NCBI GenBank assembly: GCA_013176395.1
Contig: JABMLP010000019.1
Location: 992,001 to 1,056,000 of the forward strand
Source: Venturia oleaginea
Taxonomy: Eukaryota > Ascomycota > Dothideomycetes > Venturiales > Venturiaceae
Direction: 5' to 3'
Length of the DNA stretch: 64,000 bases
Position numbers and translations under genes: made by a program. Position 1 is the first letter of the stretch. The number at the start of each line of letters is the position of its first letter. Under the pieces are notes generated by a model. The model saw only the letters and a list, made by a program, of their open reading frames with translations, was not told the DNA's origin and did no database searches. Below, piece after piece: positions 27,201 through 27,404 of this stretch.

Positions 27201-27215
27201 GGCTCTATGGTCTAG

Positions 27216-27266
27216 GTTAGTTTACTCGACATGCCGATATCGTTGATGCCAACTAATCGATACCAG
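27216..27266 (+). other. Spliceosomal-type intron 1 inside tRNA-Pro
   Basis: 51 nt, inserted after position 15 in the D-loop. The donor is GTTAGT after CTAG, the branch is ACTAAT at 27252-27257, and the acceptor is CCAG before TGGT. Size and signals match the coding-gene introns in this window (46-57 nt). It contains no tRNA-like structure of its own. Confidence 0.8.
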
Positions 27267-27276
27267 TGGTATGATT

Positions 27277-27333
27277 GTAAGTTCCCCTACTCAGGAATCC
27301 GCGACTGAATCAGCATCTAATTATGTCCCTCAG
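27277..27333 (+). other. Spliceosomal-type intron 2 inside tRNA-Pro
   Basis: 57 nt, inserted exactly between the D-arm (TGGTATGATT) and the anticodon stem (CCTGC). It has a perfect GTAAGT donor, a TCTAAT branch at 27316-27321 and a pyrimidine-rich CCCTCAG acceptor. Confidence 0.8.
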
Positions 27334-27344
27334 CCTGCTTTGGG

Positions 27345-27359
27345 AGATTGATTTCAAGA
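27345..27359 (+). other. Canonical tRNA intron after anticodon position 37
   Basis: 15 nt between G37 and T38 of the anticodon loop, the standard place for endonuclease-processed tRNA introns. It lacks GT/AG ends, unlike the other two. Confidence 0.75.
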
Positions 27360-27399
27360 TGCAGGAGGCCCCGCGTTCGAATCGCGGTGGAGCCCCAAC

Positions 27400-27404
27400 T
27401 TTTT
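27400..27404 (+). terminator. Pol III T5 terminator of tRNA-Pro
   Basis: A run of five T begins five bases after the discriminator base, the usual position for RNA polymerase III termination. It argues that the gene descends from, and may still be, a Pol III unit. Confidence 0.65.

What the first reader, a model, noticed from the sequence alone, without database searches (positions are those of the whole stretch)
27201..27395. tRNA-Pro gene interrupted by two spliceosomal-type introns
The gene makes a complete tRNA-Pro(UGG) cloverleaf only if three segments are removed. One is the usual 15-nt intron after position 37. The other two (51 and 57 nt) sit in the D-loop and between the D-arm and anticodon stem, where tRNA endonuclease introns are not normally found in fungi. 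They have GT...CTAAT...AG signals and sizes identical in style to mRNA introns here. Established: mRNA-type introns occur in a few non-coding RNAs (U6 snRNA in fission yeast, rRNA genes of some lichen fungi). I know of no described nuclear tRNA gene with two. If real, a spliceosome-dependent tRNA, needing two splicing machineries, would be new.
Basis: partly seen in the sequence, partly recalled or inferred. Interest (0 to 1): 0.95.

Follow-up and report, generated by a model that had tools for sequence, protein, structure and literature searches.

The report
tRNA genes interrupted by spliceosomal introns
In this fungus, a tRNA gene for proline, and many other tRNA genes in the same genome, appear to carry mRNA-type introns that only the spliceosome could remove, although tRNAs are thought to be spliced by a separate protein enzyme.

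Summary
Removing 27216-27266 and 27277-27333 turns an undetectable locus into tRNA-Pro(UGG) with an ordinary 15-nt 37/38 intron. Both inserts have GT, CTAAT and AG signals. The genome (46 Mb; one window protein is closest to Venturia nashicola) has a second copy with identical mature sequence, both inserts at the same sites and diverged insert sequence; one copy with only the first insert; and one without either, but with a T-stem mismatch. I resolved 31 interrupted tRNA genes for 17 anticodons, with 38 introns, median 53 nt. G at +5 plus CTRAY 8-14 nt before AG occur together in 31 of 38, against 0.86% of 5438 chance GT-AG segments. A canonical bulge-helix-bulge core is in 0 of 38. Every copy found is interrupted for Trp-CCA (3 of 3), Leu-AAG (3 of 3) and Arg-UCU (2 of 2, one damaged). 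Two U6 genes have such introns. Most likely these are spliceosomal introns in Pol III tRNA genes. No RNA data or related fungal genome could be checked.

The parts
27201..27395 (+). tRNA-Pro(UGG) gene, 195 nt, 72-nt mature form
   Evidence: ARAGORN on the spliced sequence; identical mature sequence in L090
27201..27215 (+). exon 1: acceptor 5' strand, D-stem 5' strand, start of D loop
   Evidence: acceptor 7 of 7 pairs with the 3' exon
27216..27266 (+). spliceosomal-type intron 1, 51 nt, GTTAGT..CTAAT(9 nt)..CAG, in the D loop
   Evidence: same site interrupted in L089 and L090, continuous in L088
27267..27276 (+). exon 2: 10 nt, rest of D loop and D-stem 3' strand
27277..27333 (+). spliceosomal-type intron 2, 57 nt, GTAAGT..CTAAT(12 nt)..CAG, between D arm and anticodon stem
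   Evidence: same site interrupted in L090, continuous in L088 and L089
27334..27344 (+). exon 3: anticodon stem 5' strand and anticodon UGG
27345..27359 (+). 15-nt 37/38 intron (tRNA-endonuclease type)
   Evidence: ARAGORN i(36,15); 15-nt introns at the same place in L088, L089 and L090
27360..27395 (+). exon 4: anticodon stem 3' strand, variable loop, T arm (B box GTTCGAATC intact), acceptor 3' strand
27400..27404 (+). T5 run, Pol III terminator-like, just after the tRNA

Best explanation
27201-27395 is a functional nuclear tRNA-Pro(UGG) gene, transcribed by RNA polymerase III. Its transcript needs two splicing systems: the spliceosome removes two short GT-AG introns (D loop; D arm/anticodon stem junction) and the tRNA endonuclease removes the 15-nt intron at 37/38. 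It belongs to a genome-wide set: at least 31 tRNA genes of this Venturia-like fungus carry 38 such introns, gained at many positions, some present in one paralogue and absent from another. Shown: the gene anatomy, the splice signals, conserved exons with diverged introns, stems that pair across introns. Inferred: Pol III transcription, actual splicing, and function of the mature tRNA.
For:: cloverleaf only after excision; four Pro-UGG paralogues with two, two, one and no such introns; the two double-intron copies have identical mature sequences while their introns are 63% and 66% alike, against 56 +/- 6% (maximum 71%) for unrelated introns; 31 genes, 38 introns; all 31 spliced forms are called tRNA by ARAGORN; +5 is G in 37 of 38. 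G at +5 plus CTRAY 8-14 nt before AG in 31 of 38 (28 of 35 without the three introns found by a CTAAY pattern) against 0.86% of 5438 control segments; 11 distinct T arms cut by an intron form 53 of 55 stem pairs, against 3.62 of 5 when strands are swapped between genes; 21 distinct acceptor stems 6.81 of 7 against 3.77; 21 of 21 insertions with an uninterrupted sister sequence admit a GT-AG placement (53 placements in all, 0.21 expected); canonical BHB core 0 of 38; all 3 Trp-CCA genes found are interrupted. U6 genes of the same genome carry such introns. T run of 4 or more within 60 nt downstream in 27 of 31 (three of the other four loci were cut short).
Against: No RNA evidence and no second species. 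An uninterrupted Pro-UGG copy exists (L088). Some interrupted copies look decayed (L123, L133, L166, L180; L089 has A at position 54) and one insert (L184) lacks GT. Introns in the A box region (D loop) and T loop may impair TFIIIC binding. 7 of 38 introns lack one of the two scored signals. GT-AG was assumed when junctions were written down, and one scan used to flag loci required a branch-like motif. ARAGORN gives a different anticodon from mine for 4 of 31 spliced forms. If the BHB register may shift by one, 5 of 38 junctions, intron 1 of the window gene among them, do show a 4-bp core, though swapped exons reach that number in 135 of 1000 trials.
Confidence: 0.91

Rival explanations
1. The interrupted loci are dead tRNA copies with chance or decayed insertions; uninterrupted genes supply the tRNA.
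For: Uninterrupted sisters exist for Pro-UGG (L088), Ser-AGA, Ser-GCU, Ser-UGA, Arg-UCG, Gly-GCC, Leu-UAG, Ala-UGC, Met and both Lys types. L123, L133, L166 and L180 show damaged stems or a changed U33.
Against: In five of 16 paralogue pairs compared, 66 of 66 exon end nucleotides are identical, while introns at the same site are 52-66% alike, near the 56% baseline; flanks that could be compared in full are also near their own baseline of 58%. Stems pair across introns. No uninterrupted copy was found for Trp-CCA, Leu-AAG, Arg-UCU, Arg-CCG or Gly-CCC, though a diverged one is not excluded.
Confidence: 0.05
2. The inserts are ectopic tRNA-endonuclease introns with bulge-helix-bulge motifs, as in Cyanidioschyzon or archaea.
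For: Ectopic introns in the D and T loops of nuclear tRNAs are known in Cyanidioschyzon merolae (PMC3978253, passages). With the register allowed to shift by one, 5 of 38 junctions have a 4-bp core, among them intron 1 of the window gene.
Against: In the canonical register the core is in 0 of 38 junctions (1.39 expected with swapped exons); the 5 shifted ones are within chance (mean 2.96, 135 of 1000 trials reach 5). Lengths cluster at 49-60 nt with GT, branch site and AG. Eukaryotic tRNA introns are described as mostly at 37/38 (PMC4090602, passages).
Confidence: 0.02
3. Self-splicing group I or II introns, or small mobile elements unrelated to splicing.
For: Inserts occupy conserved arms, as some mobile elements do.
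Against: About 50 nt is too short for a self-splicing intron (established knowledge); no Rfam family reaches its gathering score in the window. Introns at the same site in paralogues are about as unlike as unrelated introns.
Confidence: 0.01
4. Assembly or sequencing artefact.
For: No reads were available.
Against: 31 genes on many contigs, each with its own intron sequence and consistent splice signals.
Confidence: 0.01

Closest known systems
Spliceosomal introns in fungal U6 snRNA and U3 snoRNA genes
   Same: Canonical GT-AG introns in Pol III-type small structured RNA genes; presence varies between paralogues; the same genome has U6 introns. U3 survey: GT-AG junctions in 136 of 138, branch RCTRAY, branch to acceptor 6-36 nt in fungi (PMC5832005, passages).
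   Different: Host RNA is tRNA. That paper says U3 and U6 are so far the only small structured RNAs known to be often interrupted by an intron. Here many positions, up to two spliceosomal introns per gene, a 4-nt exon, and a second, endonuclease-type intron in many of the same genes.
Protein-spliced (tRNA endonuclease) introns at 37/38
   Same: Present here as well: 15 nt in the window gene.
   Different: The 51- and 57-nt inserts lie elsewhere and carry GT/branch/AG; no canonical BHB core.
Ectopic and multiple BHB introns of Cyanidioschyzon merolae and archaeal tRNAs
   Same: Introns in D loop, T loop and stems; several per gene (PMC3978253, passages).
   Different: No BHB core above chance here; spliceosomal signals instead.
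mRNA-type introns in fungal rRNA genes
   Same: Short spliceosomal introns in a non-coding RNA gene of ascomycetes (recalled; a 1993 title on 18S rDNA was seen in the reference list of PMC11782384).
   Different: rRNA (a Pol I transcript), not tRNA.

Membership tests
Fungal spliceosomal intron (U2 type) | GT...AG ends | tested here: met
   38 of 38 resolved introns by construction; independently, 21 of 21 insertions with an uninterrupted sister sequence admit a GT-AG placement; L184 left out, its insert lacks GT
Fungal spliceosomal intron (U2 type) | branch site CTRAY a short way before AG | tested here: met
   CTRAY 8-14 nt before AG in 32 of 38, 2.3% in control; window introns both CTAAT, at 9 and 12 nt
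Fungal spliceosomal intron (U2 type) | length typical of the species' mRNA introns | tested here: met
   median 53 nt, range 49-89, against 47, 50 and 56 nt in three mRNA introns of the window read by eye (small sample)
Fungal spliceosomal intron (U2 type) | removed by the spliceosome as a lariat | not testable with these tools
   needs RNA
Functional tRNA gene | complete cloverleaf after splicing | tested here: met
   acceptor 7 of 7, T stem 5 of 5
Functional tRNA gene | Pol III terminator and internal promoter | tested here: inconclusive
   T5 run just downstream and B box intact in the window gene; the A box region is interrupted by intron 1
Functional tRNA gene | mature tRNA made | not testable with these tools
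   needs tRNA sequencing
Bulge-helix-bulge tRNA intron | 4-bp helix between intron +2..+5 and 3' exon +2..+5 | tested here: not met
   0 of 38 in the canonical register; 5 of 38 if the register may shift by one, including window intron 1, not above chance
Group I or II intron | match to a known ribozyme family | tested here: not met
   no Rfam family at its gathering score in the window

The most novel reading that the evidence does not exclude
Spliceosomal introns have spread through the tRNA gene set of this Dothideomycete, so that decoding of some codons depends on the spliceosome. All tRNA-Trp(CCA) genes found, and all tRNA-Leu(AAG) and Arg(UCU) genes found, must be spliced by the spliceosome; many of the interrupted tRNAs also need the tRNA endonuclease, so one small RNA passes through two unrelated splicing machines.
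Probability: 0.82. Interest if true: 0.97.

Novelty: new variant of a known kind. Interest (0 to 1): 0.95.

Why it matters
A standing division says mRNA introns are removed by the spliceosome and nuclear tRNA introns by a protein endonuclease; [quoted passage not shown] These genes would break that division on a genome scale. They would tie translation to spliceosome activity, and show that Pol III precursors of roughly 120-200 nt, with exons as short as 4-10 nt, can be spliced. They would also give a natural series of intron gains, with empty sites in sister genes, in which to study how spliceosomal introns insert. A tRNA finder misses such a gene (ARAGORN: none in the unmodified locus), so others may lie unseen in other fungi.

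Tried and rejected
Bulge-helix-bulge introns: canonical core absent (0 of 38); shifted registers not above chance. Pseudogene reading for the Pro gene: rejected on exon conservation, though individual copies elsewhere are decayed. A Rfam scan of the whole window gave nothing, as expected for an interrupted tRNA. The RF00005 search of the genome is lossy: it scored 63 of 1697 candidates and missed even the uninterrupted Pro gene L088, so my set is a lower bound. The 19-gene query scored 40 of 67 candidates. The B-box + TTTT pattern gave 445 matches against 321 in the control and listed only the first part. The T-arm pattern gave 19 matches against 21 in the control, no excess as a count; only matches with a readable tRNA were kept. 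The taxon rests on one protein; the second protein search had an unnamed best hit at 80% and no hit named Venturia in its list. Comparison with other fungal genomes was not possible: the held genome collections are prokaryotic, viral or plasmid. Ten paper searches listed titles and starts of abstracts; none of those shows spliceosomal introns in nuclear tRNA genes. Three lists were cut (15 of 136, 15 of 244, 12 of 1392), and subscription journals and preprints are mostly not held, so prior reports cannot be excluded. Rows left out of the 31-gene table: L184 (insert without GT), L187 (identity unclear), L175 (decayed Gly), the second copy in L145/L179 (truncated Leu). One search stopped with an error and was rerun.

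Full report
The observation. The locus at 27201-27395 gives no tRNA by ARAGORN or Rfam as it stands. With 27216-27266 and 27277-27333 removed, ARAGORN reports tRNA-Pro(tgg) with a 15-nt intron in the anticodon loop; with that removed too, a 72-nt tRNA-Pro. Acceptor stem 7 of 7 and T stem 5 of 5 pairs form. Insert 1 begins GTTAGT and has CTAAT 9 nt before its end at CAG; insert 2 begins GTAAGT and has CTAAT 12 nt before its end at CAG. A T5 run follows at 27400-27404. In a blind scan of both strands of the window, 2901 ways of removing one or two GTNNG...AG segments with a branch-like motif gave 6 tRNA calls, all at this locus (one the Pro solution, five alternative solutions there); 3935 variants of the reversed sequence gave none.

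Paralogues. The genome holding the window has 46 Mb in 61 contigs. One window protein, a 710-aa amino acid transporter, is 94% identical to one of Venturia nashicola and 87% to one of Venturia effusa, so I call it a Venturia-like Dothideomycete; a second protein search gave no named Venturia hit. A search with the joined mature sequence found four Pro-UGG genes, 4 of 4 candidates scored. L090 has both inserts at the same two sites; L089 has only the first; L088 has neither. All four have a 15-nt 37/38 intron. The mature sequences of the window gene and L090 are identical, but the inserts are 63% and 66% alike, against 56 +/- 6% (maximum 71%) between unrelated introns of the set, and the flanks 60% and 66%, against 58 +/- 4-5% (maximum 70%) between unrelated genes. 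L088 is uninterrupted but has a C-C mismatch in the T stem; L089 has A in place of the conserved T54. So the two copies with an intact T arm are the two double-intron copies.

It is genome wide. Reading the tRNA loci found by several probes gave 31 interrupted genes with 38 introns for 17 anticodons: Pro-UGG, Ser-AGA/GCU/UGA, Arg-UCU/UCG/CCG, Gly-CCC/GCC, Leu-UAG/AAG/CAG, Met-CAU, Ala-UGC, Lys-UUU/CUU, Trp-CCA. Sites include the D stem and loop, the D arm/anticodon stem junction, the anticodon stem, the variable loop, the T stem and the T loop; 16 of 38 lie in the T arm, 8 of these before the last 5' base of the T stem, where the intron's own AG rebuilds the B box GG. Seven genes have two introns; Gly-GCC-1 (L084) has a 4-nt exon, TGGT, between two of them. 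All 31 spliced forms are called tRNA by ARAGORN; in 4 (Leu-AAG-2, Met-CAU-2, Lys-UUU-1, Trp-CCA-3) its anticodon differs from my reading because of where it puts the 37/38 intron. A T run of 4 or more follows within 60 nt in 27 of 31; three of the other four loci were fetched with less than 60 nt of trailer.

Splice signals. Median length 53 nt, range 49-89; +5 is G in 37 of 38; ends are CAG 17, TAG 16, AAG 5. G at +5 and CTRAY 8-14 nt before the AG together occur in 31 of 38, against 0.86% of 5438 GT-AG segments of 49-60 nt in the window (binomial p about 1e-57). Three of the 38 introns (L119 second, L120, L123) were found with a pattern containing CTAAY; without them it is 28 of 35. Some loci were first flagged by a scan that requires a branch-like motif, though loci were then read by eye. 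GT-AG was assumed in writing junctions down, so a separate check used uninterrupted sister sequences: 21 insertions, 53 equivalent placements in all, 0.21 GT-AG placements expected, 21 of 21 found. For the Leu-AAG rows the sister is the shared 5' half of Leu-CAA, L169. Two clear mRNA introns of the window are alike (47 and 56 nt; CTAAC and CTGAC) and a third is weaker. A canonical bulge-helix-bulge core is present in 0 of 38 junctions, against 1.39 expected with swapped exons. If the register may shift by one, 5 of 38 have a 4-bp core (first introns of Pro-UGG-1, -2, -3 and Gly-GCC-1, and Trp-CCA-2), against 2.96 with swapped exons; 135 of 1000 swaps reach 5.

Selection on the spliced product. 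In five of 16 pairs compared (Pro-UGG-1/2, Ser-GCU-2/3, Arg-UCG-1/2, Leu-AAG-1/2, Met-CAU-1/2), 66 of 66 exon end nucleotides are identical while introns at the same site are 52-66% alike, near the baseline; other pairs are lower (63 to 65 of 66, and 39-60 of 66 for Trp, Ser-AGA and the two Lys types, whose sequences differ or are out of register). Eleven distinct T arms that are cut by an intron form 53 of 55 stem pairs, against 3.62 of 5 when 5' and 3' strands are swapped between genes; 21 distinct acceptor stems form 6.81 of 7 pairs against 3.77. The two missing T-stem pairs are in L123 and L133, which look decayed.

How common, and are the genes needed? Two probes blind to the presence of introns give a fraction. 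The Ser variable-arm 13-mer hit 14 places, of which I read 12 as tRNA-Ser (L150 and L153 are not): 7 interrupted, 5 continuous. The Arg/Trp D-arm 17-mer with up to one mismatch hit 12 places, all tRNA-like: 9 interrupted (8 GT-AG, 1 without GT), 3 continuous. For Trp-CCA all 3 genes found (3 of 3 candidates) are interrupted in the variable loop; Trp-CCA-1 has a weak branch and a mismatched acceptor, the other two are sound apart from an A31-C39 mismatch shared by all three. Both Arg-UCU genes found are interrupted, and one of them (L166) has A at position 33. Leu-AAG: L167 and L168 (11 of 11 candidates scored) and L085 from a B-box match, all interrupted. One search missed L085 and the interrupted Leu-CAG gene L176, whose stretches matching the query are short, so these searches lose interrupted genes more readily than intact ones; a diverged intact copy is still not excluded. 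The C38 contig, read as the mitochondrial genome, has its own Trp and Arg-UCU genes.

U6 as a yardstick. The same genome has 7 U6 matches above the family cut-off, 47 of 2907 candidates scored. L189 and L190 are interrupted by 52- and 58-nt GTAAGT..CTAAC..CAG introns at two different places; L191 has a degenerate insert; four are continuous by length, two of which I read. A survey of fungal U3 snoRNAs says that U3 and U6 are so far the only small structured RNAs known to be often interrupted by an intron (PMC5832005, passages).

Mechanism. Most likely Pol III makes a precursor of about 200 nt; the spliceosome removes the two GT-AG introns in the nucleus, which lets the D arm and cloverleaf form; the endonuclease then removes the 37/38 intron. 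The order is inferred: Sen54 of the endonuclease is reported to contact the D arm of its substrates (PMC4090602, passages), so spliceosomal removal should come first. How the introns arrived is open; paralogues with and without the intron fit recent gain, for example reverse splicing into the RNA followed by copying into DNA, or loss by gene conversion. Introns in the A box or T loop may change promoter strength; 7 of the 18 genes with enough upstream sequence have a TATA-like match in the last 60 bases, six of them near -35 (no control was run).

Novelty. Known kinds are spliceosomal introns in U6, U3 and rRNA genes of fungi, and endonuclease introns in tRNA. A spliceosomal intron in a nuclear tRNA gene is not described in anything the ten paper searches listed (listings, with passages of seven papers). 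I rate it a new variant of a known kind because the introns themselves are ordinary; the host gene class and the scale are new. The main weakness is the absence of RNA data and of a second species.

Noticed in passing
L189 (C12:1178040-1178300), L190 (C36:59790-60060), L191 (C2:1122060-1122320): U6 snRNA genes with GT-AG introns at two different sites (L189, L190) and one degenerate copy (L191), beside continuous U6 copies.
   Followed up: partly
L084 1337-1521: tRNA-Gly(GCC) with two spliceosomal-type introns separated by a 4-nt exon, TGGT, in the D loop.
   Followed up: partly
L184 (C12:1294700-1294950): tRNA-Arg(CCG)-like gene with an insert at the usual T-loop site that starts ATAAGT or GATAAGT instead of GT; either a non-canonical splice site or a dead copy.
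   Followed up: no
L187/L185 (C22:334660-335020): tRNA-like gene with a 54-nt GTCAGT..CTAAC..CAG insert near position 9/10; isotype unclear.
   Followed up: partly
L179 (C23:763600-764000): Leu-UAG gene with a T-arm intron, followed about 50 nt on by a truncated second 3' part that also carries an intron-like insert.
   Followed up: no
L032, L033, L141, L142, L161: tRNA-Asp genes share a conserved leader (about GACAAGCNCAGCTTGCC) just before the tRNA that could form a small hairpin; in L161 both arms differ but still pair.
   Followed up: no
L180, L182, L183: All three tRNA-Trp genes share an A31-C39 mismatch at the end of the anticodon stem.
   Followed up: no
genome G000: No Pro-AGG gene was found by the Pro search; it may be diverged or split into exons too short to detect.
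   Followed up: no
G000:C58 (18,945 bases): L021, L022: Small contig with two inverted copies of an A+T-rich tRNA-Arg(TCG), mitochondrial in style; perhaps a mitochondrial plasmid.
   Followed up: no
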